64,000 nucleotides of DNA from Mesorhizobium sp. B2-1-1 (GTDB lineage: Bacteria > Pseudomonadota > Alphaproteobacteria > Rhizobiales > Rhizobiaceae). Positions 4,658 through 63,972 of the stretch are shown one piece after another (position 1 is the first letter of the stretch; every line of letters begins with the position of its first letter). The stretch spans positions 5,277,501 through 5,341,500 of the forward strand of contig NZ_CP083954.1 of the NCBI RefSeq assembly GCF_006442975.2. Reading direction: 5' to 3'. The notes under the pieces were generated by a model. That model did no database searches. It worked only from the letters and a program-made list of their open reading frames with translations, and was not told where the DNA came from. The translations under genes were made by a program, and so were the position numbers.

Positions 4658-5866
4658 GTGAAAGCATCCTATCTCATCTCAGCCGCGCTGCTTGTGGGTA
4701 CCGCGATGCCAGCGGCGGCAGCCGAAATTTCCGACGGCAAGGTCAAGATCGGCATCCTCAACGACCAGTCGGGTGTCTATGCCGATTTCGGCGGCAAATG
4801 GTCCGTCGAGGCGGCCAAGATGGCTGTCGAGGATTTCGGCGGCAAGGTCCAGAATGCGCCTATCGAGGTCATCAGCGCCGACCACCAGAACAAGCCGGAC
4901 ATCGCCTCCAACATAGCGCGCCAGTGGTACGACACCGAGCAGGTCGATGCCATAATGGAACTGACCACCTCCTCGGTGGCGCTCGCCGTGCAGGGACTTT
5001 CCAAGGAAAAGAAGAAGATCGACATCGTCACCGGCGCGGCTGCGACCGACCTGACCGGTAAGCAGTGCTCGCCCTATGGTTTCCATTGGGCCTACGACAC
5101 CCATTCCCAGGCCGTCGGCACAGGCGGTGCCCTGGTGCAGCAAGGCGGCGACAGCTGGTATTTCATCACCGTCGACTACGCCTTCGGCTATTCGCTCGAG
5201 GAGCAGACCGCCAAGCTCGTCAAGGATCGCGGCGGCAAGGTGCTTGGTGAAGTGCGCTATCCGCTCGGCTCGACCGACTACTCATCCTTCCTGCTGCAGG
5301 CGCAATCCTCCGGCGCCAAAATCGTTGGCCTTGCCAATGCCGGTCTCGACACTTCCAACTCGATCAAGCAGGCGGCCGAATTCGGCATCGTCGCTGGCGG
5401 CCAGCGGCTCGCGGCACTTCTGTTCACGCTGGCCGAAGTGCATGGCCTTGGCTTGCAGGCGGCCCAGGGCGTCGTGCTGACCGAAGGCTTTTACTGGGAT
5501 CGCGACGACAAGAGCCGCGAGTTCGCCAACCGCTTCTTCAAACGCACCGGCAGGATGCCGAACATGATCCAGGCCGGGACGTATTCGGCGGTGTCGCAGT
5601 ATCTCAAGGCCATCGACAAGGCCGGCACCGACGAAACCGAAGCGGTGGCCAAGGAAATGCATTCGATGCCGGTCAATGACGTCTTTACCGCCAACGGCAA
5701 GGTGCAGGCCGACGGCTCCATGGTGCACGACATGTACCTCTATCAGGTCAAGAAGCCCGAGGAGAGCAAGAAGGATTGGGACTACTACACCTATCTTGCA
5801 ACCATTCCGGGCGACCAGGCCTTCATGAAGGCCACGGATAGCGGCTGCCCGCTCGTCAGCAAGTGA
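4658..5866 (+). CDS. Branched-chain amino acid/amide-type ABC binding protein
   Basis: Periplasmic receptor of the HAAT (Liv/Urt/Fmd) family, 402 residues, with a clear Sec signal peptide ending near AAAAE. The mature start KVKIGILNDQSGVYADFGG is the classical type-1 periplasmic binding fold opening. The GTG at 4658 was chosen because AAGGGAGGA lies just upstream and the signal peptide begins there; upstream in-frame ATGs would place about 49 unlikely residues before it. It heads a complete five-gene Liv-type operon and overlaps the next gene by 4 bp (GTGA). The ligand cannot be told from sequence; short-chain amides, urea and branched-chain amino acids are all known for the family. Confidence 0.88.
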   Translation: MKASYLISAALLVGTAMPAAAAEISDGKVKIGILNDQSGVYADFGGKWSVEAAKMAVEDFGGKVQNAPIEVISADHQNKPDIASNIARQWYDTEQVDAIMELTTSSVALAVQGLSKEKKKIDIVTGAAATDLTGKQCSPYGFHWAYDTHSQAVGTGGALVQQGGDSWYFITVDYAFGYSLEEQTAKLVKDRGGKVLGEVRYPLGSTDYSSFLLQAQSSGAKIVGLANAGLDTSNSIKQAAEFGIVAGGQRLAALLFTLAEVHGLGLQAAQGVVLTEGFYWDRDDKSREFANRFFKRTGRMPNMIQAGTYSAVSQYLKAIDKAGTDETEAVAKEMHSMPVNDVFTANGKVQADGSMVHDMYLYQVKKPEESKKDWDYYTYLATIPGDQAFMKATDSGCPLVSK

Positions 5867-46783: not shown

Positions 46784-48940
46784 ATGAGCCAGTCAGATCA
46801 GCCGTTTGAGGCAATCAGTCCACTGGGAGGCCAATCCCTTTTGCTGGCCACTGCGATCGCTCTCGGCCGTCTCGTCAGCAAACCGCGGACGATTGTTCAT
46901 GTGCTGTCTTACTTGCGCCGGCGGGTGACCGGGCGCGCCAAGGCCGTTGGCAAGAACCTTCATCTCTACATCATCGATCTGGCCCTGGCGCTGGCGGCAC
47001 TGTCGTTTGCTTCATTCATGCGATTGGGCCTTGATGGAGAATTCACCGGTCCGGAAAGCCACGCTTCGTTGCTCTTCGCACTCCCTTGCTTCCTGCTTAC
47101 ATGCGCCGTGGTCTTCCCGGTGACTTGCCTCTACACCCGCAACTGGCGATATGCTTCTGTCGGCGACATGCTCGGTATCGTTCGCGCGGCATTCGTCACA
47201 TCGCTGGCCTTCGTGTTCCTGATGTTTGTGGCTACACGGCTCGATTCGATCCCGCGCTCGGTGATAGTGATCCAGTTTCTGTTGCTCGTGCCGCTGCTTA
47301 TTTCAGTTCGCATCCGCTCCAAGCTCGTTGAGCTAAGCCGCTTTGGTCCGACTGCGAACAGAGCGAGAAACGGACGCGACGTGGTCCCTGTGCTGCTGAT
47401 CGGTGCAGGCGATGCGGCCGATCTTTATATTCGCGCGCTGCAGCGGGATCCGAATGCACGCCATTGGCCGGTCGGCGTGCTCGATAATGGCGCAACGACA
47501 GAGGGCTATTTCCTGCGCGGCGTGCCGGTTCTGGGCAGCATCGAAGACTTCGACATGGTCATCGGCGATCTGGAAGGTCGCGGCATCAAGCCCCGCCACG
47601 TGATTTTCACCGAAAGGGTGCCTGGCCTCGTCGACCCGATGCTTGAAGCGCTGATCGACCGGGCCGACCGTCTGGGCATCGCTGTCTCTCGCCCCGCCCC
47701 GGTCCTGGAACTGCGCAATCCTAAATATCAGAGTCGCTTCGACTTGCGCCCCATCGAACTTACCGACCTTCTGGAGAGGCCGCAGGCGGTTCTTGATAAA
47801 GATGCGTTGTCCCGAATGATCGAAAACAGGCGCATCGTCGTCACCGGCGCCGGAGGCTCGATCGGCGGAGAGCTCACGCAGCAGATTGCCGCGCTCGGCC
47901 CCACCGAAGTGGTCCTGATCGATAACAGCGAGTACAATCTGTACGCCATCGATCTGGAATTGGCGGAGAAATTCCCTAATGTGCGCCGGAAGCCATATAT
48001 CTGCGACGTACGCGACCCTGTTCGCCTGGGCGAGATTTTCCGACGCCATCGCGTCGACCTGGTCTTCCACGCGGCGGCGCTCAAACATGTGCCGATGGTC
48101 GAGTTGAATCCCTGTGAGGGCATTCTTACCAACGTCATCGGTACTATGAACGTGGCAGAAGCGACCCGCCTTTGCGGCGCCAAGGCAATGGTCCAGATAT
48201 CCACCGACAAGGTTGTGAACACGACCAGTGTCATGGGCGCTACCAAGCGCCTTGCGGAACTCTACTGCCAGTCCCTGGACCTCGCCTTCACCGCCGGCGA
48301 TACCCCCGTCCGCTTCATGACCGTTCGTTTCGGCAATGTTCTGGGTTCAAGCGGGTCGCTGATCCCGCTGTTCAAGCGCCAACTCGCCCACGGCGGTCCG
48401 CTGACCGTGACCGACATGGAGATGAAGCGCTTCTTCATGACAATACGCGAGGCGGTTGAACTGACCTTGCAGGCATCGGCCCATGGTCTGGAGAAAAAAC
48501 TCGGACAGGGCGAAATCTTCGTTCTCGACATGGGTGCGCCAATCAAGATCATCGACATGGCGCGCCGCATGATCAAGCTCGCGGGATTTCGGCCGGATGA
48601 GGACGTCAAGATCAAGATTGTCGGCTGCCGGCCGGGAGAAAAGCTGTTCGAGGAACTCTTCGACGAAAGCGAAAGACGTGTCGACGTTCCGATTTCCGGA
48701 GTCTTGGGCGCCGTGCCCAACGCGATGCCGCTTGACACGCTTCGCAAGGGATTTTCGCAATTGCGTCGCTTGGCGAGGGCCGGCGACACTGAGGGAGTGT
48801 TAAATCTTGTTGCGGATATGCTTCCCAGTTACCGCAGAGAGGAAGCCAAGCCTGCGGCGGCGGTGACGGCGCCCTTCGTGCCTCATGTGATCCTCGGTTC
48901 AGCCAAGGCAACCACGCGTCCACACGAGGCGGCCGCTTGA
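46784..48940 (+). CDS. Membrane-bound UDP-sugar 4,6-dehydratase (FlaA1/CapD/WbpM type)
   Basis: 718 residues. Four N-terminal membrane segments (about residues 65-185) are followed by a redox-like Rossmann domain and then the large catalytic SDR domain with IVVTGAGGSIGGELTQQI near 348 and ISTDKVVNTTSVMGATKRLA, where Met484 and Lys488 replace the usual Tyr-x3-Lys, as in WbpM. This group converts UDP-GlcNAc to UDP-4-keto-6-deoxy-GlcNAc, the first step to bacillosamine and related amino sugars. That product is the natural substrate for the DegT aminotransferase at 59753. The ATG at 46784 was chosen; frame extends upstream without a good site. Confidence 0.88.
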   Translation: MSQSDQPFEAISPLGGQSLLLATAIALGRLVSKPRTIVHVLSYLRRRVTGRAKAVGKNLHLYIIDLALALAALSFASFMRLGLDGEFTGPESHASLLFALPCFLLTCAVVFPVTCLYTRNWRYASVGDMLGIVRAAFVTSLAFVFLMFVATRLDSIPRSVIVIQFLLLVPLLISVRIRSKLVELSRFGPTANRARNGRDVVPVLLIGAGDAADLYIRALQRDPNARHWPVGVLDNGATTEGYFLRGVPVLGSIEDFDMVIGDLEGRGIKPRHVIFTERVPGLVDPMLEALIDRADRLGIAVSRPAPVLELRNPKYQSRFDLRPIELTDLLERPQAVLDKDALSRMIENRRIVVTGAGGSIGGELTQQIAALGPTEVVLIDNSEYNLYAIDLELAEKFPNVRRKPYICDVRDPVRLGEIFRRHRVDLVFHAAALKHVPMVELNPCEGILTNVIGTMNVAEATRLCGAKAMVQISTDKVVNTTSVMGATKRLAELYCQSLDLAFTAGDTPVRFMTVRFGNVLGSSGSLIPLFKRQLAHGGPLTVTDMEMKRFFMTIREAVELTLQASAHGLEKKLGQGEIFVLDMGAPIKIIDMARRMIKLAGFRPDEDVKIKIVGCRPGEKLFEELFDESERRVDVPISGVLGAVPNAMPLDTLRKGFSQLRRLARAGDTEGVLNLVADMLPSYRREEAKPAAAVTAPFVPHVILGSAKATTRPHEAAA

Positions 48941-57035: not shown

Positions 57036-58397
57036 ATGGCATCTTATTGCAATGCGGCGCGGAGCAGGCGATCGACAGGCGCGTGGACCAGTACATTCCT
57101 TGCGAAAGCACTGGGATTCGCCAGTATTGCGATCCTTGCGGTTGCGGCGATTCTGATTTCCCAGCTTGATGCCTGGGCCGCGGCGGACGATGACTACAAG
57201 GTTTCGGTCGGCGATGTGGTGTCGTTTGACTTCATCGACGACGCGCTTCCCGCCGAACAACTCACGGTCGCCAGCGATGGCGCGATCAACATTCCGCTGA
57301 TCGGCAGCTTTGAAGTCGGCGGCCTGACGGTGCCCGACGCCTTGAGTCGTATCCGTAAGGCATTCATCGAGCGTGAACTCTTCAATGACCCGCATATAGC
57401 TCTTGCGGTGGTGAGCTTCCGCCCGATCTTCGTCCTTGGGGATGTAAAGGCGCCGGGCTCGTTTCCTTACCAGCCGGCACTGAATGTGGAGCAGGCGGTG
57501 GCGCTTGCGGGCGGCCAGTCGACCGGGGGAGCCACGGCGGAGGATCGCGTCGTAACACGCGCCCGATTGCGCGGAGCTCTTGATGAAAGCGTGGTGGAGA
57601 TCGCCAAGGAGGCGGTCGCCGCTGCGCGCATCAAGGCCCAATTGGCAAACAGCGACAAGATCTCGGAACTGGATCTGCCTGCCAAGATCAAAGGCCTCAT
57701 GAACGCCAACTTGCTCGCGACGCTGCTTCCTACCGAGCAGCGCATCCTTGAAGCAGATCAACATGCGCTGACGACACGTCGCAAGCAGCTCTCGGCGGGG
57801 ATCGAAGAAGTGAATGTTGCCCTCGCCAATGTTCAACAGCTTTCGGACATACAAAAGACAGTGATCGCTTCGGCACAGGCGGATCTCGATCGCATCAGGG
57901 GCCTTAACAAGAAAGGTCTCGTCACAATCACAGACCTCTCGAACGCCGAGCGCGAAGCGACCACGCAGCAATCCCATCTGCTTGAAATCTACAATCAGGC
58001 ATCGACGGTGCGCCGCGAATTGAGCCAGTTGCAGCGCGACCTGGATGACGCCACCCAGACCTGGACACACACGGCGCTGACGGATCTCCAGGCCCACAAC
58101 TCTGAAATCGAACGCCTGATCGCGGTTCGAGAATCGACCGAGGAACAGATCCTGCTGTTGAGCTCGCTGGCCGCGGAGCAGACACGCAGCAACAACTCCA
58201 TCACGTTCACCTACCAGATCCGCCGCAAGGTAAATGGCCAGACCGCCACAAAGGTGGCGACCCTCGACGATCCGGTTGCGGCCGGAGATACGATCCTTGT
58301 GTCAATAAACCGCCTGGATAGCGCCCAGGACACGACAAGCCGTTCAGCCACTACCTTGGCGACGACCTCTTCCGTCCAGGTCGGACCGTCGCAATGA
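57036..58397 (+). CDS. Outer-membrane polysaccharide export protein (ExoF/Wza-like)
   Basis: 453 residues. After a hydrophobic N-terminal signal, residues 50-150 form the polysaccharide-export domain (DDYKVSVGDVVSFDFIDD, GAINIPLIGSFEVGGLTVPD) followed by a SLBB-like segment (IFVLGDVKAPGSFPYQPALN). The middle is a long coiled coil (about 200-390), as in ExoF of succinoglycan synthesis. No lipobox cysteine is evident, so it may be a periplasmic/outer-membrane adaptor rather than a lipoprotein pore. First gene of the operon that ends with the lipoyl-acyltransferase; overlaps the sugar transferase by 4 bp. Confidence 0.87.
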   Translation: MASYCNAARSRRSTGAWTSTFLAKALGFASIAILAVAAILISQLDAWAAADDDYKVSVGDVVSFDFIDDALPAEQLTVASDGAINIPLIGSFEVGGLTVPDALSRIRKAFIERELFNDPHIALAVVSFRPIFVLGDVKAPGSFPYQPALNVEQAVALAGGQSTGGATAEDRVVTRARLRGALDESVVEIAKEAVAAARIKAQLANSDKISELDLPAKIKGLMNANLLATLLPTEQRILEADQHALTTRRKQLSAGIEEVNVALANVQQLSDIQKTVIASAQADLDRIRGLNKKGLVTITDLSNAEREATTQQSHLLEIYNQASTVRRELSQLQRDLDDATQTWTHTALTDLQAHNSEIERLIAVRESTEEQILLLSSLAAEQTRSNNSITFTYQIRRKVNGQTATKVATLDDPVAAGDTILVSINRLDSAQDTTSRSATTLATTSSVQVGPSQ

Positions 58398-59056
58398 TCG
58401 GCCTCAGCACCCCAACAGCACGTTCCGGCGGCTGGACTGCGCGCGTTCCGCTTGGCCGGGCCATACCAAGCCGTATCGCCGCGGTGATCCTTTTGGTTCT
58501 CAGCCTGCCGCTATGGCTCGTGGCTGCTGCCATTGTCTGGGCCAGTGTCGGCCGTCCATTGTTTTTCCGCCAGTCTCGCAGCGGGCTGGAAGGTCGCCCG
58601 TTCGTGATCTGCAAGTTTCGTACGATGCACGAAGGGCGAGACGGGAATGGCATGCTGCTCCCCGACGCTTTGCGTGAGACGCCGGCCACGCGATTGATGC
58701 GCTCCGTCCGCATCGATGAGCTGCCGCAGCTTCTCTCGATCGCCAGGGGGGACATGGCCTTCATGGGGCCCCGTCCGTTGCTCCCGGCCACCATCGCCGA
58801 ATTCGGCGAGCTGGGGCGTATTCGCGGCACGGTCCGCCCCGGCCTGTCCGGATGGGCACAGGTGAACGGCAATACCCGCCTCACCAACAGCGAAAAGCTA
58901 GCGCTCGACCTCTGGTATGTGCGCAACCGCAGCCTGTGGCTCGATCTGCACATACTGGTTCTGACTGTCCAAGTGGCACTGTTGGGCGAACGTGTCGACC
59001 GCCGCCATGTCGACCATGCTTTGAAGGCTATGCCCGCCGGGACGGTCCGGCCATGA
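58394..59056 (+). CDS. Initiating sugar-phosphate transferase (PglC-like)
   Basis: 220 residues, a minimal monotopic phosphoglycosyl transferase: membrane hairpin near residues 28-50, FFRQSRSGLEGRPFVICKFR, RIDELPQLLSIARGDMAFMG and RPGLSGWAQVNGNTRLTN. It links a sugar phosphate to undecaprenyl phosphate to start the repeat unit. PglC, the enzyme for diacetylbacillosamine phosphate, has this same short form. ATGA overlaps on both sides couple it to the export protein and the PIG-L deacetylase. Confidence 0.9.
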   Translation: MIGLSTPTARSGGWTARVPLGRAIPSRIAAVILLVLSLPLWLVAAAIVWASVGRPLFFRQSRSGLEGRPFVICKFRTMHEGRDGNGMLLPDALRETPATRLMRSVRIDELPQLLSIARGDMAFMGPRPLLPATIAEFGELGRIRGTVRPGLSGWAQVNGNTRLTNSEKLALDLWYVRNRSLWLDLHILVLTVQVALLGERVDRRHVDHALKAMPAGTVRP

Positions 59057-59730
59057 ACCCAGCACTCGGTCGACTTCTGGTGATCGCACCGCATCCTGAT
59101 GATGAGGTCCTGGGGTGTGGCGGCACGATAGCCCGGATGGCTGCCCAAGGCGCAGAAGTTCATGTCGCAGTGGTTACGCGAGGCAGCCCGCCCGCCTTCA
59201 CAGAGGAGATGACGGAACGGGTTCGCAGCGAGGCCAAGGCGGCGCATGCCTGTTTGGGCGTGCAACAGACGCATTGGCTTGATCTGCCGGCAGCGCAGAT
59301 CGCCGAGACGCCGCACGCGACGCTCAACAGGGCGCTGCTGACCCTGTTGCGGGATGTCGTGCCGGATACGTTGCTCATCCCTTTCGTCGGTGATGTGCAC
59401 ATGGACCACCAGCTGATCTTCCTGTCATCGCTGGTAGCGGCTCGCCCGACCCAATCTCAATATCCGCGGACGATCATGGCTTACGAGACCGTCTCCGAAA
59501 CGAACTGGAATGCCCCCTATGTGACGCCGAGCTTCGTGCCGAACGTCTTCATAGACATCGCATCGACGCTGGACCGCAAACTCGAAGCTGCGTCGATGTT
59601 CGCCTCACAGATCAGAGATTTCCCGCATGAGCGTTCGATCGAAACCTTGCGGGCGCTTGCGATCGTCAGGGGCACCGCCGCCCATCTGAGGGCGGCCGAG
59701 GCCTTTGTCCTTCTGCGAAACGTCATTTGA
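59053..59730 (+). CDS. PIG-L family deacetylase
   Basis: 225 residues of the zinc-dependent LmbE/PIG-L family, which removes N-acetyl groups from GlcNAc derivatives. The metal motif APHPDDEVLGCGG is at the N-terminus and the second His motif is in DVHMDHQLIF near residue 116. No signal peptide, so it acts on a cytoplasmic precursor. ATG at 59053 lies in an ATGA overlap with the sugar transferase. Next to an aminotransferase and an acyltransferase, it may free an amine for re-acylation; this is inference. Confidence 0.87.
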   Translation: MNPALGRLLVIAPHPDDEVLGCGGTIARMAAQGAEVHVAVVTRGSPPAFTEEMTERVRSEAKAAHACLGVQQTHWLDLPAAQIAETPHATLNRALLTLLRDVVPDTLLIPFVGDVHMDHQLIFLSSLVAARPTQSQYPRTIMAYETVSETNWNAPYVTPSFVPNVFIDIASTLDRKLEAASMFASQIRDFPHERSIETLRALAIVRGTAAHLRAAEAFVLLRNVI

Positions 59731-59752: not shown

Positions 59753-60928
59753 ATGAAACGCTGGCCAATCTACGACGAAGAACAAATAACCGATGTGGTA
59801 GAGGTTTTGCGATCCGGCCAGGTGAACGCCTGGACCGGCGACCATGTGAAGACCTTCGAACGCGCCTATGCGCGCAGCCTCGGCCGACGTCACGCGGTGG
59901 CGCTGGCCAACGGCTCGCTCGCGCTGGATCTTGCGATGAAGATTCTCCACATCGGCGCCGGCGACGAGGTGATCGTCACGCCCCGCAGTTTCGTCGCCTC
60001 CGCCGCCTGCGTCATGTTTGCCGGCGCCACGCCCGTTTTCGCGGATGTCGACCCGAGTTCGGGCAACCTTTCCGCCGAGACGATTGCGCCGAAGATAACG
60101 GCTCGAACAAAGGCAGTGATCGTCGTGCATATTGCCGGCTGGCCGTGCGACATGGCGCCGATCATGGAACTCGCAAAGCGCAGCGGCATAAAAGTCATCG
60201 AAGATTGCGCCCAGGCGCATGGAGCCGAATACAACGGACGACCGATTGGCTCCTTCGGCGACATAGCGGCGTTCTCGTTCTGCCAGGACAAGATCATCAC
60301 GACGGGCGGCGAAGGTGGGCTTGTCGCAATGGACGACAAGAAATTGTGGCTCGCTGCCTGGAGCCTCAAGGACCACGGCAAGAACTACGATCTGGTCTTT
60401 GCCCCCCATAGGGCGACCGGGTTTCGCTGGCTGCATGACAGCATCGGCACCAACTGGCGCATGACATCAATCCAGGCAGTGCTTGGCTTGCGGCAGCTCG
60501 AGCGCCTACCCGACTGGACTCGCCAACGCGAGCGAAATGCCAGCATCTGGATGATGACGCTTGCTGAATTGCCGATGCTGCACGCGCCCCAGCTCGGTTC
60601 GGAGCATAAGCATGCCTGGTACCGATGCTATTTCTATATCAAGCCCGAGATGCTGTCCCCCGGATGGTCGCGCGACGAGTTGATTGCGGCTATCAATGCG
60701 GCCGGCGTCCCATGCTTCTCGGGAAGCTGCTCTGAGATCTATCTTGAACATGCCTTCGCGGACGCCGGGGTAGCGCCGCCCGAACGTCTGCCGATCGCAC
60801 GGCAGCTCGGTGAAACGAGTATGGCTTTTCTGGTCGACCCGTCCTGGACGACCGAGGAGACCATGGCTGCCGCGTCGACGGCGCGGTCAATCCTTGTTAC
60901 GGCTTCGCGCCAGCTCGAGGCAGCATGA
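59753..60928 (+). CDS. DegT/DnrJ/EryC1/StrS sugar aminotransferase
   Basis: PLP-dependent aminotransferase, 391 residues, converting a keto-sugar nucleotide into an amino sugar. The PLP lysine is Lys180 in SFCQDKIITTGGEGGLV; the preceding EDCAQAHGAEYNGRPIG carries the cofactor Asp region and LANGSLALDLAMKIL is the N-terminal phosphate-binding area. It ends in a 4-bp overlap with the E1 alpha gene. The FlaA1-like dehydratase at 46784 could supply its 4-keto substrate, as PglF does for PglE. Confidence 0.9.
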   Translation: MKRWPIYDEEQITDVVEVLRSGQVNAWTGDHVKTFERAYARSLGRRHAVALANGSLALDLAMKILHIGAGDEVIVTPRSFVASAACVMFAGATPVFADVDPSSGNLSAETIAPKITARTKAVIVVHIAGWPCDMAPIMELAKRSGIKVIEDCAQAHGAEYNGRPIGSFGDIAAFSFCQDKIITTGGEGGLVAMDDKKLWLAAWSLKDHGKNYDLVFAPHRATGFRWLHDSIGTNWRMTSIQAVLGLRQLERLPDWTRQRERNASIWMMTLAELPMLHAPQLGSEHKHAWYRCYFYIKPEMLSPGWSRDELIAAINAAGVPCFSGSCSEIYLEHAFADAGVAPPERLPIARQLGETSMAFLVDPSWTTEETMAAASTARSILVTASRQLEAA

Positions 60929-61935
60929 CAAAGGAACGCGCGATCAGGAAGGATGAAACCGTTCTAGCGTCTTCTCTGGCAGAGCTGCAGATAGTGACGT
61001 CGTCAGCAGCGCGGAACCTCACTCTTGCCCCTACAGAGCGTGGTTTGCTCGGATTCGAACTGCCAGCCGCGGTTCGATTTTATCAGCAGATGATGCTCAT
61101 CCGGCTCGTGGAGGAGCGCTTGCTCGATCTTTTTTCCCAAGGTCTCCTGTTCGGCACGACGCACACGTCCATTGGACAGGAAGCCAATGCGGTTGGCGTG
61201 ATAAACGCTCTTGACCGGGACCGCGACATTGTCTGGAGCAACCACCGCTGCCACGGTCATTTCATTGCCTATTCGGGCGAAGTCGAGGGCCTGATAGCCG
61301 AGATCATGGGGCGTGTAACCGGCATTTGCGGCGGACGCGGCGGCAGCCAGCACCTGTGCTTCCGCAACTTCCACTCCAATGGCATCCAAGGAGGCATCGC
61401 ACCCGTCGCAGTTGGTAGTGCGCTGGCGCGAAAGGACGAGGGCGCCGTCGCAGTGGTGTTCCTCGGCGACGGCACGATGGGCGAGGGAGCCGTATACGAG
61501 AGCCTGAACCTTGCGTCTGTTTTCGCCGCCCCGGTGGTCTTTGTGATCGAGGACAACGAGATCGCGCAGACGACGCCCAAGCATCTGACCGTCTCCGGTT
61601 CGATCGTCGCCAGGGCCGAGCCGTTCGGCGTCCGCACATTCGCCTATGACGGCAACGATCCGATCGCGATATATGAGCTCGCCCAAGAAGCCGTAGGCTA
61701 TGTACGCGCCGAATCCCGCCCTTGCTGGCTCTACTTGCGAACCGAGCGGATCGGCCCCCACAGCAAGGGAGATGATACGAGGCCGGCGGAGCGTCTTGAG
61801 CAAGCTCGAGCCAGAGATCCCATACCCCCGATGCGCCGGCGCGTTGCCAACGCCGATGAGATCGACGCCTACTGCCTGAATGTCGTGGACCGCGCGGTCG
61901 AATCCGCCGCCGCGGCCGCCTTGGCGCGGGGTTGA
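60925..61935 (+). CDS. Thiamine-diphosphate 2-oxoacid dehydrogenase E1 alpha subunit
   Basis: 336 residues of the pyruvate/acetoin/branched-chain dehydrogenase E1 alpha family. The ThDP motif is GDGTMGEGAVYESLN from residue 181 to IEDNEIAQTTP; HRCHGHFIAYSG and GGRGGSQHLCF are conserved active-site stretches. With E1 beta it should decarboxylate a 2-oxoacid and acylate a lipoyl group. It has an N-terminal extension of about 40 residues. It overlaps the sugar aminotransferase by 4 bp. No standard E2 gene is nearby; the only lipoyl protein is the acyltransferase fusion two genes on. Its oxoacid substrate is unknown. Confidence 0.9.
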   Translation: MTKERAIRKDETVLASSLAELQIVTSSAARNLTLAPTERGLLGFELPAAVRFYQQMMLIRLVEERLLDLFSQGLLFGTTHTSIGQEANAVGVINALDRDRDIVWSNHRCHGHFIAYSGEVEGLIAEIMGRVTGICGGRGGSQHLCFRNFHSNGIQGGIAPVAVGSALARKDEGAVAVVFLGDGTMGEGAVYESLNLASVFAAPVVFVIEDNEIAQTTPKHLTVSGSIVARAEPFGVRTFAYDGNDPIAIYELAQEAVGYVRAESRPCWLYLRTERIGPHSKGDDTRPAERLEQARARDPIPPMRRRVANADEIDAYCLNVVDRAVESAAAAALARG

Positions 61936-61938
61936 TCC

Positions 61939-62871
61939 ATGCGTGTCGTCGAATCTATCAATCGCGCGCTACACGATCTCATGGGAGCCGATCTCCGTCT
62001 GGTGATTTTGGGTGAGGATGTTCTTGACCCCTACGGTGGCGCCTTCAAAGTCACCAAGGGTCTTTCGTCAGCCTATAAGGACCGTGTCTGGACCACGCCG
62101 ATCAGCGAAGGCGGCATTGTTGGCATGGCGGCAGGCATGGCCATCAAAGGCCGGCCTGTGATCGTCGAACTCATGTTCGGAGACTTCATAGCCCTTGCTG
62201 CCGACCAGATCATCAATCACGTCGCCAAGTTCCGCTGGATGTACAACGATCAGGTTGAGGTCCCCGTCATCATCCGCGCTCCCATGGGCGGACGGCGCGG
62301 CTATGGGCCGACGCACTCGCAAAGTCTGGAAAAGCATTTTTGCGGCGTGCCCGGGCTGACGGTGCTTGCCACTCACGAGTATGCCGATCCTGGCACGCTT
62401 CTGCATCGGGCCTTCGCGTCGCGATCCCCTCACCTGATCATCGAAAACAAGGTGATGTATTCCAGGCCCGTGCTCGGACCCGACGCGCTTCCACGCCCGG
62501 CGGATGCAGATGTCGTGATCCTGACATATGGGGGTTGCGTCGAGCACGCTGTCGCGGCCGCAAAGAAACTCGCGCAAGAGGAGGAAATCGCGACCACCGT
62601 GGTGGCCGTCGAACAGCTGTCGCCCTTCCCTGGCGATGAGGTCCGAAGCCAGGTCGGCAACTGCACGCGTGTGGTCGCGGTGGAGGAAGGCTCTCCCGGC
62701 TGGGGCTTCGCGTCGGAGTGTGCGCGCGCGCTGATCGGCCGGGTCAGGCACTTCAGCGCATTGACCGGGCCCGATCACCCCATTCCCTCAAGCCGCGACT
62801 GGGAGGACGATCTGCTGCCGGGTGTGAACGCCATCCAGGCGGCCTGCATCGAGCTGTTCCAGAAAGGCTAA
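61939..62871 (+). CDS. Thiamine-diphosphate 2-oxoacid dehydrogenase E1 beta subunit
   Basis: 310 residues, transketolase-like E1 beta. Conserved parts: LGEDVLDPYGGAFKVTKGL near residue 24, TPISEGGIVGMAAGMAIKG with the catalytic Glu, GRRGYGPTHSQSLEKHFCGV near 118 and the C-terminal transketolase domain VAVEQLSPFPGDEV. Starts 3 bp after E1 alpha and ends 6 bp before the lipoyl-acyltransferase fusion, so the three are surely co-expressed. Together they form a complete E1 heterotetramer unit inside a polysaccharide operon, which is not its usual central-metabolism setting. Confidence 0.9.
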   Translation: MRVVESINRALHDLMGADLRLVILGEDVLDPYGGAFKVTKGLSSAYKDRVWTTPISEGGIVGMAAGMAIKGRPVIVELMFGDFIALAADQIINHVAKFRWMYNDQVEVPVIIRAPMGGRRGYGPTHSQSLEKHFCGVPGLTVLATHEYADPGTLLHRAFASRSPHLIIENKVMYSRPVLGPDALPRPADADVVILTYGGCVEHAVAAAKKLAQEEEIATTVVAVEQLSPFPGDEVRSQVGNCTRVVAVEEGSPGWGFASECARALIGRVRHFSALTGPDHPIPSSRDWEDDLLPGVNAIQAACIELFQKG

Positions 62872-62877
62872 GCGTAC

Positions 62878-63972
62878 ATGACCGTGCTTGTCGAAGCCCC
62901 GCGGGTTAACGCCAACGAGGACAATCTCCAGCTCATCGAGATTCGGGTCGCACAAGGTGAAAGGGTCGAACAAGGCACCATTCTTTTCGTGCTTGAGACC
63001 ACCAAGGCCGCAGTCGAGGTAGATGCTCCGGAGGCAGGAACTGTCGGCCTGCTGGACATCAAGGTCGGTGACTTCGTTCCTGTCGGCGCAACGCTTTGCA
63101 AAATCATCGACGAAAATTCGAATGTCGTTGTCGGGGAGACCAGCGCGGCCGATGTCGGGGCCAGCGAGGTCGCGATAACGGCTAAAGCCCGCAAGGCCGC
63201 ATCCGAGCTCGGGGTCGACCTTGCGGACGTCGTTCCGTCCAATGGCCGTATTGGCGAAGCCGAGGTGCGCGCTGCTGCCAGCCGCCGATCAGGCGCCAAG
63301 AGAGCCGAACCGGGCGAGCCGAGTTCCGTCGCTTTCTCCAGGCGGGCCGTCATCATCGGCGGCGGCGGCCACGCCGCCTGTTTGATCGATGCTCTCGATG
63401 GTGCCGGATACGATATCCTGGGCTGCACCGATCAAGCGTTGCCCGCCGGCCACCACGTCTGCGGCGGTATTTCGGTGATCGGCACGGAAGACTGCCTGGA
63501 GCGCTTGCTTGCCGAGGGCACGCGCCATGCCTTCATCGGCATCGGAGGCGCCCAGTCAAGCCAGGTGAGGCGGGCAATGTATGAACGCGCCACCGCAATG
63601 GGCTTCGTTCTGCCGCCTGTGATCCATCCTTCCGCGATCGTCTCCAAGGCGACCAGGATTGGACATGGCTGCCATATTCTGGCCGGCGCGAGCATCGGTC
63701 CGCGCTGTACGATCGGTAACAACGTCATCGTCAATCAGGGGACTATAGTCTGCCACGACAGCGTCGTTCAGGACAATGCGCACCTGACACCAGGCGCTAT
63801 CATAGCCGGCGGAGTGGGCATCGGAGCCTTGACCGTCGTGGGAATGGGCGCAACGGTGCTCCTGGGCGTCCAGATCGGCGCCGACTGCCTGATCCACAAC
63901 GGCGCGCACATCAGCGCCAATGTCGCAGACAACACCATCGTCGACGCGCAGGGCCGCCGCCATCTCCGCTAA
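62878..63972 (+). CDS. Lipoyl domain - E3-binding domain - NeuD/PglD sugar acyltransferase fusion
   Basis: 364 residues in three domains. Residues 1-78: lipoyl domain with the modifiable Lys43 in LETTKAAVEV. About 99-133: peripheral-subunit (E3)-binding domain, ITAKARKAASELGVDLADV and GRIGEAEVRAA. From about 155: NeuD/PglD fold, first a Rossmann-like part AVIIGGGGHAACLIDAL, then left-handed beta-helix hexapeptides. His293 (VCHDSVV) and His302 (HLTPGA) have the same nine-residue spacing as His125 and His134 of Campylobacter PglD. The E2 catalytic domain and its HxxxDG motif are absent. The likely reaction is transfer of an acyl group, produced by the adjacent E1, from lipoyl to the amine of an amino sugar. 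Confidence 0.88.
   Translation: MTVLVEAPRVNANEDNLQLIEIRVAQGERVEQGTILFVLETTKAAVEVDAPEAGTVGLLDIKVGDFVPVGATLCKIIDENSNVVVGETSAADVGASEVAITAKARKAASELGVDLADVVPSNGRIGEAEVRAAASRRSGAKRAEPGEPSSVAFSRRAVIIGGGGHAACLIDALDGAGYDILGCTDQALPAGHHVCGGISVIGTEDCLERLLAEGTRHAFIGIGGAQSSQVRRAMYERATAMGFVLPPVIHPSAIVSKATRIGHGCHILAGASIGPRCTIGNNVIVNQGTIVCHDSVVQDNAHLTPGAIIAGGVGIGALTVVGMGATVLLGVQIGADCLIHNGAHISANVADNTIVDAQGRRHLR

What the first reader, a model, noticed from the sequence alone, without database searches (positions are those of the whole stretch)
60925..63972. 2-oxoacid dehydrogenase E1 plus a lipoyl-E3BD-NeuD fusion: a lipoyl-dependent sugar N-acylation system
Seen: E1 alpha, E1 beta and a protein with lipoyl domain (Lys43), E3-binding domain and a PglD/NeuD acyltransferase (His293, His302), with gaps of 3 and 6 bp, directly behind a sugar aminotransferase. 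Known: in E2 enzymes the domain after the E3-binding domain passes the acyl group from lipoyl to CoA; PglD/NeuD transfers acyl from acyl-CoA to an amino or hydroxyl group of a sugar. Inferred: here the E2 core has been replaced by the sugar acyltransferase, so acyl groups made by decarboxylating a 2-oxoacid go straight from lipoyl to the amino sugar, perhaps giving unusual acyl groups. I know of no characterised example.
Basis: partly seen in the sequence, partly recalled or inferred. Interest (0 to 1): 0.95.

Follow-up and report, generated by a model that had tools for sequence, protein, structure and literature searches.

The report
Sugar acyltransferase fed by lipoyl arm
A Mesorhizobium-type bacterium carries, in a predicted polysaccharide gene cluster, a pyruvate-dehydrogenase-like E1 enzyme next to a protein that joins the usual lipoyl carrier domain to a sugar-acylating enzyme instead of the normal E2 core, so that acyl groups made from keto acids are likely passed straight from the lipoyl arm to a sugar without coenzyme A, a route for which our literature searches found no precedent.

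Summary
In detail: E1-alpha, E1-beta and a 364-aa lipoyl / E3-binding-like / NeuD-PglD protein follow a sugar aminotransferase with a 4-bp overlap and gaps of 3 and 6 bp. It is not a one-off. Among 80 related loci, 51 encode the lipoyl-NeuD fusion; 48 of the 51 carry E1 in the same locus and the other three genomes carry same-subfamily E1 elsewhere. None of 29 NeuD loci without a seen lipoyl domain carries E1. Lipoyl Lys43, the NeuD base His293 and the E1 catalytic residues are conserved. The 51 fusions lack a C-terminal GxPA element that most ordinary NeuDs have and that is probably tied to CoA binding. A reverse search from E1-beta found the same E1 subfamily beside lipoyl proteins with an E2 core in six of 12 genomes, and the tree shows core swapping. 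One operon also carries its own E3. Best reading: a 2-oxoacid dehydrogenase system whose E2 core has been replaced by a sugar acyltransferase, probably acylating sugars directly from lipoyl. Direct transfer, the 2-oxo acid and the acyl group are unproven; an amino-sugar acceptor is well supported only in the window and some lineages.

The parts
47834..48682 (+). domain of a PglF/CapD-type nucleotide-sugar 4,6-dehydratase (open frame 754 aa); would make the 4-keto sugar
   Evidence: PF02719 357 bits, E=1.3e-106 at G000:C1:5325334-5326182; role inferred
58394..59056 (+). short initiating sugar-phosphate transferase (PglC-like, 220 aa)
   Evidence: PF02397 E=5.7e-48; PglC-likeness from its length and family, inferred
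59053..59730 (+). PIG-L / BshB-type de-N-acetylase
   Evidence: PF02585 E=2.1e-25; start taken from the 225-aa gene of the codon-bias caller
59753..60928 (+). DegT-type sugar aminotransferase; closest solved relative 7L7X (Pcryo_0638, which acts in UDP-2-acetamido-4-amino-2,4,6-trideoxyglucose formation)
   Evidence: PF01041 E=1.3e-91; 7L7X E=1.5e-130, 439 bits; PMC8040287 passages
60925..61935 (+). E1-alpha (ThDP-dependent 2-oxoacid dehydrogenase type, 336 aa)
   Evidence: PF00676 E=9e-50; GDG 181-183 (61465-61473; D182 in 44 of 45, both G in 45 of 45), N211 and H279 (61759-61761) in 45 of 45
61939..62871 (+). E1-beta (310 aa), with subfamily motifs LDPYGGAFKVT and GRRGYGPTHSQ
   Evidence: PF02779/PF02780; E57 in 47 of 48, H126 in 48 of 48
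62878..63972 (+). lipoyl / E3-binding-like / NeuD-PglD fusion protein (364 aa)
62878..63105 (+). lipoyl domain, residues 1-76
   Evidence: PF00364 E=1.3e-11; model pLDDT over 90 and Foldseek matches to lipoyl and biotinyl domains
63004..63006 (+). Lys43, predicted lipoylation site (ETTKA)
   Evidence: invariant in 48 of 48, 118 of 120 (2 gaps)
62908..62916 (+). N-x-N motif, residues 11-13, in the loop between strands 1 and 2, a region read by E1 in known lipoyl domains
   Evidence: N11 and N13 invariant in 48 of 48; strands 2-6 and 16-22; PMC6270654 passages
63172..63297 (+). E3-binding-like (peripheral-subunit-binding) domain, residues 99-140, between two flexible linkers
   Evidence: TIGR01348 best stretch at 99-144; PF02817 weak in the window, 20 of 48 members; linkers pLDDT under 50
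63343..63942 (+). NeuD/PglD sugar N-acyltransferase module, residues 156-355 (PglD_N plus left-handed beta helix)
   Evidence: TIGR03570 162.7 bits; best fold match PerB 4EAA, TM-score 0.80 by target length
63754..63756 (+). His293, predicted catalytic base (aligns with PerB His141)
   Evidence: alignments with 4EA7/4EAA/4EAB (H141N and H141A named); 48 of 48, 120 of 120
63844..63846 (+). Met323, clade signature in the beta helix
   Evidence: 51 of 51 fusions, 5 of 29 without lipoyl, 0 of 43 further ordinary NeuDs
63898..63900 (+). Asn341, clade signature in the last coils
   Evidence: 50 of 51 against 5 of 29 and 0 of 43

Best explanation
The three genes encode a hybrid 2-oxoacid dehydrogenase system in which a NeuD/PglD sugar acyltransferase stands where the E2 acyltransferase core would be, and which is predicted to pass acyl groups straight from lipoyl to a sugar. 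Step 1 (inferred): E1-alpha/E1-beta decarboxylate a 2-oxo acid on ThDP and reductively acylate the lipoyl group on Lys43. Step 2 (inferred): the flexible lipoyl arm carries the acyl thioester into the active site of the NeuD trimer, where the His293 base lets an amino (or hydroxyl) group of a nucleotide sugar attack it; CoA is not needed. Step 3 (inferred): dihydrolipoyl is re-oxidised by E3, shared with the housekeeping complexes here and encoded in the operon in one relative. In this window the acceptor is most likely a UDP-4-amino-4,6-dideoxy-GlcNAc-type sugar made by the dehydratase and the aminotransferase, then used by the PglC-like transferase. The acyl group is unknown: acetyl from pyruvate is the simplest, other small acyl groups are open. 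Shown directly: the domains, their order, the conserved residues, the co-occurrence with E1 and the different cores within the E1 subfamily.
For: (1) Domain order lipoyl / E3-binding-like / NeuD with no E2 core. (2) E1 linkage: 48 of 51 fusion loci against 0 of 29 loci without a seen lipoyl domain; the three exceptions have a same-subfamily E1 elsewhere in the genome at 51-54% identity, next paralogues 35-41%. (3) Lys43, E1-alpha N211 and H279, E1-beta E57 and H126 and NeuD His293 conserved; N-x-N in the E1-recognition loop invariant in 48 of 48. (4) Core replacement: the same E1 subfamily has as next gene a lipoyl protein with an E2 core, a NeuD-type core or another hexapeptide transferase (PF00198 confirmed by Pfam for four of the six E2 cases); NeuD and E2 partners mix within one supported branch (100/93) of the E1-beta tree, at least two changes forced. 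(5) The fusions lack the GxPA tail: 0 of 51 and 0 of 4 reverse-survey NeuD-type fusions, against 22 of 29 and 31 of 43 without lipoyl; a proline there is coupled to CoA binding in Pcryo_0637/PglD (PMC8040287; that it is the GxPA proline is inferred). (6) L184: E1, lipoyl-NeuD-like protein and E3 (Lpd type) in one operon with genes read as NeuB and NeuC. (7) The own genome has a LipA and three lipoamide dehydrogenases over the cut-off.
Against: No biochemistry. Met323, Asn341 and loss of GxPA are also seen in five clade members without a seen lipoyl domain (L063 and L079 cut by contig ends; L037 and L059 lack lipoyl and a close E1), so they may be clade traits rather than signs of lipoyl use; conversely two E1-linked NeuD-like fusions (L142, L181) lack Asn341, and L181 also Met323 and L142 and L181 the His302 equivalent. 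12 of 43 further ordinary NeuDs also lack GxPA. The hexapeptide partner in L182 keeps a GGIPAQ tail. An E3 like that of L184 is in 1 of 92 loci searched. The E3-binding domain is under the Pfam cut-off in the window. Many fusion loci (Chloroflexota, Actinomycetota) show no sugar genes that I could recognise nearby, so the acceptor there is unknown. The beta-helix part of the model is only moderately confident (60-79).
Confidence: 0.7

Rival explanations
1. The NeuD module is an ordinary acyl-CoA-dependent sugar acetyltransferase; the lipoyl and E3-binding domains only tether it to a 2-oxoacid dehydrogenase complex so that it catches acyl-CoA made nearby.
For: The catalytic His and the overall NeuD fold are ordinary; the own genome has conventional E1, lipoyl-protein and E3 genes side by side; 12 of 43 ordinary NeuDs also lack GxPA.
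Against: The linked E1 forms its own subfamily, and in the reverse survey the lipoyl protein itself is the gene next to E1; Lys43 would not need to be invariant; 0 of 51 fusions keep the GxPA tail; E2-core relatives occupy the same slot.
Confidence: 0.15
2. E1 and lipoyl make an acyl thioester that the NeuD module first moves to CoA or an acyl carrier protein, the sugar being acylated later by another enzyme.
For: E2-core members of the same E1 subfamily sit near ACP-like ORFs in L183 and L186 (by motif and reading), so a thiol acceptor is plausible in that branch.
Against: The studied NeuD/PglD relative acylates the amino group of a nucleotide sugar (PMC8040287), and the sugar-binding PglD_N domain is matched in 48 of 48 aligned fusions. 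ACP genes near the window fusion were not searched for specifically.
Confidence: 0.07
3. E1 does carbon-carbon chemistry (two-carbon branching of a sugar, as proposed for E1-like pairs in avilamycin-type pathways; recalled), and the lipoyl-NeuD protein is a side partner.
For: E1-like pairs occur in sugar pathways (recalled); L142 lies beside genes read as CDP-glucose dehydratase, C-methyltransferase and RmlC.
Against: Such chemistry needs no lipoyl arm or E3-binding domain, yet Lys43 and the E1-recognition loop are invariant in 48 of 48, and in all 12 reverse-survey genomes the gene next to E1-beta encodes a lipoyl-type protein.
Confidence: 0.05

Closest known systems
2-oxoacid dehydrogenase complexes (PDH, BCDH, acetoin dehydrogenase): E1, lipoyl-E3BD-E2, E3
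   Same: ThDP E1-alpha/beta with conserved catalytic residues; lipoyl domain and E3-binding-like domain joined by flexible linkers; E3-type gene in the operon of one relative
   Different: No E2 core (PF00198) in the fusion; a sugar acyltransferase stands there. E1-alpha scores 214 bits on the PDH equivalog model against a cut-off of 393.85.
NeuD / PglD / PerB / Pcryo_0637 sugar N-acetyltransferases
   Same: PglD_N plus left-handed beta helix, catalytic His, over the TIGR03570 cut-off, nearest solved fold PerB
   Different: Fused to lipoyl and E3-binding-like domains, linked to E1, lacks the GxPA tail, carries Met323 and Asn341.
Acetoin dehydrogenase E2 of the NF011457 type
   Same: A lipoyl-domain protein whose catalytic domain is, from recall, an alpha/beta hydrolase fold rather than the usual E2 core; the model matches residues 6-133 of the fusion at 44.1 bits (cut-off 307)
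   Different: From recall it still acetylates CoA and has no sugar-binding module.
Pcryo_0638 / Pcryo_0637 (Psychrobacter) diacetamido-sugar pathway
   Same: Window aminotransferase is closest to Pcryo_0638 (439 bits), next to a NeuD-type acylation step
   Different: Pcryo_0637 uses acetyl-CoA, and the text does not mention lipoyl (PMC8040287).

Membership tests
2-oxoacid dehydrogenase E2 | lipoyl domain with modifiable Lys | tested here: met
   PF00364 E=1.3e-11; Lys43 in 48 of 48. Lipoylation itself not tested.
2-oxoacid dehydrogenase E2 | E3/peripheral-subunit-binding domain | tested here: inconclusive
   PF02817 under cut-off in the window (E=0.0038), 20 of 48 members at E<=0.01
2-oxoacid dehydrogenase E2 | CAT-like catalytic core PF00198 | tested here: not met
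   absent; NeuD/PglD module instead
2-oxoacid dehydrogenase E2 | acyl transfer to CoA | not testable with these tools
   needs enzyme assay
2-oxoacid dehydrogenase E1 (heterotetrameric) | E1_dh, Transket_pyr and Transketolase_C domains with ThDP motif and catalytic Glu/His | tested here: met
pyruvate dehydrogenase E1 (TIGR03182 equivalog) | score over the equivalog cut-off | tested here: not met
   214 bits against 393.85; the genome's own PDH E1-alpha scores 487.3
NeuD/PglD sugar N-acetyltransferase (TIGR03570) | score over cut-off | tested here: met
   162.7 against 160.8
NeuD/PglD sugar N-acetyltransferase (TIGR03570) | catalytic His | tested here: met
   His293 aligns with PerB His141; 48 of 48
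NeuD/PglD sugar N-acetyltransferase (TIGR03570) | C-terminal GxPA element, probably holding the CoA-coupled proline (common, not universal, so not taken as defining) | tested here: not met
   0 of 51 fusions; 22 of 29 and 31 of 43 without lipoyl
NeuD/PglD sugar N-acetyltransferase (TIGR03570) | acyl-CoA as donor | not testable with these tools
   needs enzyme assay

The most novel reading that the evidence does not exclude
A modular family of CoA-free acylation machines: one E1 / lipoyl / E3-binding chassis on which the transferase core is exchanged, so that acyl groups made by decarboxylating 2-oxo acids go directly from lipoyl to amino sugars (NeuD core), to other acceptors (other hexapeptide core) or perhaps to acyl carrier proteins (E2-like core), including acyl groups that cells do not hold as CoA esters.
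Probability: 0.5. Interest if true: 0.95.

Novelty: new variant of a known kind. Interest (0 to 1): 0.87.

Why it matters
If true, lipoyl is a direct acyl donor for sugar modification, a role for which our searches found no report (open-licence PMC papers only), and the E2 core of one of biochemistry's best-known complexes is an exchangeable module. It would predict new N-acyl groups on bacterial surface glycans, make the question of what decides the acceptor in lipoyl complexes testable by core swaps that nature has already done, and give a CoA-free acylation tool. It also gives a function to a broad set of proteins now named only NeuD family acetyltransferase or biotin/lipoyl-containing protein (names seen).

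Tried and rejected
Tried with little result: a viral-contig scan confirmed no relative; no plasmid record covers 80% of the fusion in one place; the first gene caller by ORF length failed in GC-rich loci and was replaced by a codon-bias caller; Anaerolineales neighbours first suspected as lipoate genes turned out to be a LysM-type gene (by reading) and a methyltransferase (Pfam); a protein search with the L184 lipoyl region found only two proteins, one of them itself; hidden lipoyl domains in L037, L053 and L059 were looked for and not found.

Considered and rejected: chance gene order (48 of 51 against 0 of 29); biotin rather than lipoyl (ETTKA, no MKM; motif knowledge recalled); E1 as the genome's own PDH (subfamily distinct). 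Rows dropped or capped: one search scored only the 7997 candidates sharing most words and listed 120 of 276 hits; one search kept the best 80 of 202 relatives found through one motif, so the sample is biased to it; L023 was left out of the tree as too short; 5 of 50 loci gave no NeuD hit (L140, L141, L148, L158, L159), and L142 (a fusion) and L146 (a repeat of L117) were left out, so 43 remain. L110-L139 were the best-scoring matches, 20 further regions were my pick, with long open frames preferred. The class and phylum samples overlap.
Full report
OBSERVATION. The window is G000:C1:5277501-5341500 of a 6.18-Mb genome; its fusion protein is 97% identical to a protein named from unclassified Mesorhizobium (P0001). 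The four genes lie as described: aminotransferase 59753-60928, E1-alpha 60925-61935, E1-beta 61939-62871, fusion 62878-63972. The AlphaFold model (mean pLDDT 81.7) shows a well-predicted lipoyl fold (1-76), a two-helix segment (102-140) and a PglD-like module, joined by low-confidence linkers 82-95 and 141-150, the layout of an E2 protein; the beta-helix part is less sure (60-79). Foldseek ranks PerB N-acetyltransferase first and also finds lipoyl and biotinyl domains.

HOMOLOGUES. A protein search gave 276 hits among the 7997 candidates scored; the best 120 were listed. Aligned to the family, 118 of 120 have Lys43 (2 gaps) and 120 of 120 have His293, Met323 and Asn341. In 48 aligned fusions (the window's and 47 of the 120) N11, N13, Lys43 and His293 are invariant. 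N11 and N13 lie between strands 2-6 and 16-22 of the model, the surface loop that a review names as a determinant of E1 recognition (PMC6270654, passages only).

LINKAGE TO E1. A scan of genome contigs with the family alignment returned 202 relatives, best 80 kept. 51 are lipoyl-NeuD fusions; in 29 no lipoyl domain is seen, two of them cut off by contig ends. E1 is in the locus for 48 of 51 fusions (both subunits in 46) and 0 of 29 others (Fisher p about 1e-18, without correction for kinship). In 45 of 51 the E1 match edge is within 600 bases of the fusion frame. In the three exceptions (L022, L044, L048) the same genome holds an E1-alpha 51-54% identical to the window's, with next paralogues at 35-41%, and those E1s carry the subfamily motifs. 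Two genomes with clade NeuDs without lipoyl (L037, L059) have only 29-30% E1s and no hidden lipoyl domain in the locus. The 51 loci come from at least Pseudomonadota, Myxococcota, Chloroflexota, Actinomycetota, Bacteroidota, Verrucomicrobiota, Gemmatimonadota and Thermodesulfobacteriota. Within the genus the full-length fusion is sporadic: 6 of 146 genomes at E<=1e-20.

E1 IS A DISTINCT, INTACT SUBFAMILY. Across 45 E1-alpha and 48 E1-beta sequences from fusion loci the catalytic positions are kept: E1-alpha GDG (D in 44 of 45), N211 and H279 in 45 of 45, E1-beta E57 in 47 of 48 and H126 in 48 of 48 (the roles follow from alignment with PDH chains and general knowledge of E1). Motifs LDPYGGAFKVT and GRRGYGPTHSQ set the subfamily apart from the genome's own E1s, and the E1-beta tree separates it from four reference E1s with 100/100 support. 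E1-alpha is 38, 31 and 26% identical to the three E1-alpha paralogues of the genome that were compared and fails the PDH equivalog cut-off, so its 2-oxo acid cannot be named.

THE CORE DIFFERS WITHIN THE E1 SUBFAMILY. Searching from E1-beta, 3 of 385 class genomes and 10 of 398 phylum genomes (overlapping samples, own genome in both) have a subfamily E1-beta at E<=1e-50: 12 distinct genomes with the own. In all 12 the next gene encodes a lipoyl-type protein (PF00364 run by Pfam on the own and eight others; L178 by tblastn, L179 and L180 by tblastn or reading). Its C-terminal part is NeuD-type or NeuD-like in five (own, L142, L178, L181, L184), another hexapeptide transferase in one (L182), and an E2 core in six (L177, L179, L180, L183, L185, L186); PF00198 was confirmed by Pfam for L177, L183, L185 and L186, L179 and L180 by reading. 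In the tree, E2- and NeuD-partnered E1s mix inside one branch with 100/93 support, and at least two partner changes are forced by starred branches; L177, L028 and L142 are long branches of unsure place. This is what exchange of one transferase core for another should leave behind; the direction is not shown.

IS COA STILL USED? In Pcryo_0637 and PglD a conserved C-terminal proline turns from trans to cis when CoA binds (PMC8040287, sections 8 and 11; its identity with the GxPA proline follows from the Asn-Pro in that text and is my inference). GxPA is in 0 of 51 fusions, 22 of 29 NeuDs without a seen lipoyl domain, 31 of 43 further ordinary NeuDs and 0 of the 4 reverse-survey NeuD-type fusions. 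Met323 and Asn341 mark the clade: 51 and 50 of 51, against 5 of 29 (the same five clade members, L037, L053, L059, L063, L079) and 0 of 43. This fits loss of a CoA element but does not prove it: those five share the pattern without a seen lipoyl domain, L142 lacks Asn341 and L181 lacks both signatures although E1-linked, 12 of 43 ordinary NeuDs lack GxPA, and the hexapeptide partner in L182 keeps a GGIPAQ tail.

E3 AND LIPOYLATION. E3 is shared among the complexes of a cell (PMC6270654, passage). The own genome has three lipoamide dehydrogenases over the family cut-off and one lipoyl synthase. In L184, a Vibrio splendidus protein by identity with P0121, a lipoamide dehydrogenase-type gene stands in the same operon as one-gene E1-alpha/beta and the lipoyl-NeuD-like protein, with genes read as NeuA, NeuB and NeuC. 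A search with that E3 found no other copy in 92 loci and the window, apart from one weak 48-bit match.

ACCEPTOR. The window has a PglF/CapD-type dehydratase, an aminotransferase closest to Pcryo_0638 (439 bits), which the paper places in UDP-2-acetamido-4-amino-2,4,6-trideoxyglucose formation, and a PglC-like transferase. This points to a UDP-4-amino sugar (inferred). Other fusions sit in nonulosonic-acid-like (L017, L184) or deoxysugar-like (L142) clusters, by reading, but only 12 of 51 fusion loci have a DegT match, against 21 of the 29 others, and in many Chloroflexota and Actinomycetota loci I recognised no sugar genes. The acceptor may differ by lineage.

LITERATURE. Searches for lipoyl with NeuD, with sugar acyltransferase, with hexapeptide/E2 core, and with nonulosonic or capsular terms found no such system (searches returned nothing; some searches returned listings whose titles and abstract starts show none; open-licence PMC papers only). 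Seen: PMC8040287 (outline, abstract, two sections, passages); PMC6270654 (passages).

VERDICT. The best-supported reading is a 2-oxoacid dehydrogenase system in which a sugar acyltransferase replaces the E2 core, with direct lipoyl-to-sugar transfer as the likely but untested step.

Noticed in passing
L177:6986-8065, L179:6996-8135, L180:6990-8123, L183:6993-8357, L185:6981-8426, L186:1266-2405: The same E1 subfamily is followed by lipoyl proteins with an E2-type core. ACP-like ORFs lie nearby in L183 and L186 (motif and reading) and perhaps L177 (reading; the one L177 ORF scanned, 4713-4997, gave no Pfam match). Perhaps these acylate an acyl carrier protein instead of CoA.
   Followed up: partly
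L182:3239-5446 (minus): A lipoyl protein with a very long Pro/Ser-rich linker and a different hexapeptide acyltransferase, in a locus with genes read as NeuB, NeuC and NeuD.
   Followed up: partly
L184:4865-12392 (minus): An operon with a lipoamide dehydrogenase-type E3, one-gene E1-alpha/beta and a lipoyl-NeuD-like protein among genes read as NeuB and NeuC.
   Followed up: partly
L049:6976-7962 and eight further actinobacterial loci: A sulfotransferase-family gene (PF13469 in L049, the others by cluster) directly upstream of the fusion in nine actinobacterial loci; sulfotransferase-family genes also lie near the L018 and L020 fusions.
   Followed up: no
L028, L033, L034, L039, L045, L050, L056, L060: E1-alpha and E1-beta are one gene (639-685 aa) in these eight fusion loci.
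   Followed up: no
L037:4943-5623, L059:7944-8609: NeuDs of the fusion clade (Met323, Asn341) without lipoyl domain and without a close E1 in the genome; lost or never gained.
   Followed up: partly
L142:465-6639: A diverged lipoyl/hexapeptide protein with E1-alpha/beta beside genes read as CDP-glucose 4,6-dehydratase, C-methyltransferase and RmlC, and no DegT hit in the locus.
   Followed up: no
window 59053-59730: A PIG-L / BshB-type de-N-acetylase between the PglC-like transferase and the aminotransferase, also in four Mesorhizobium fusion loci (L010, L011, L012, L058); it might free an amino group for re-acylation.
   Followed up: no
G000:C1:4546842-4547426 (L154): The same genome also holds an ordinary NeuD with a GxPA-type tail and no E1 in the 12.6-kb stretch, a natural internal control.
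   Followed up: partly
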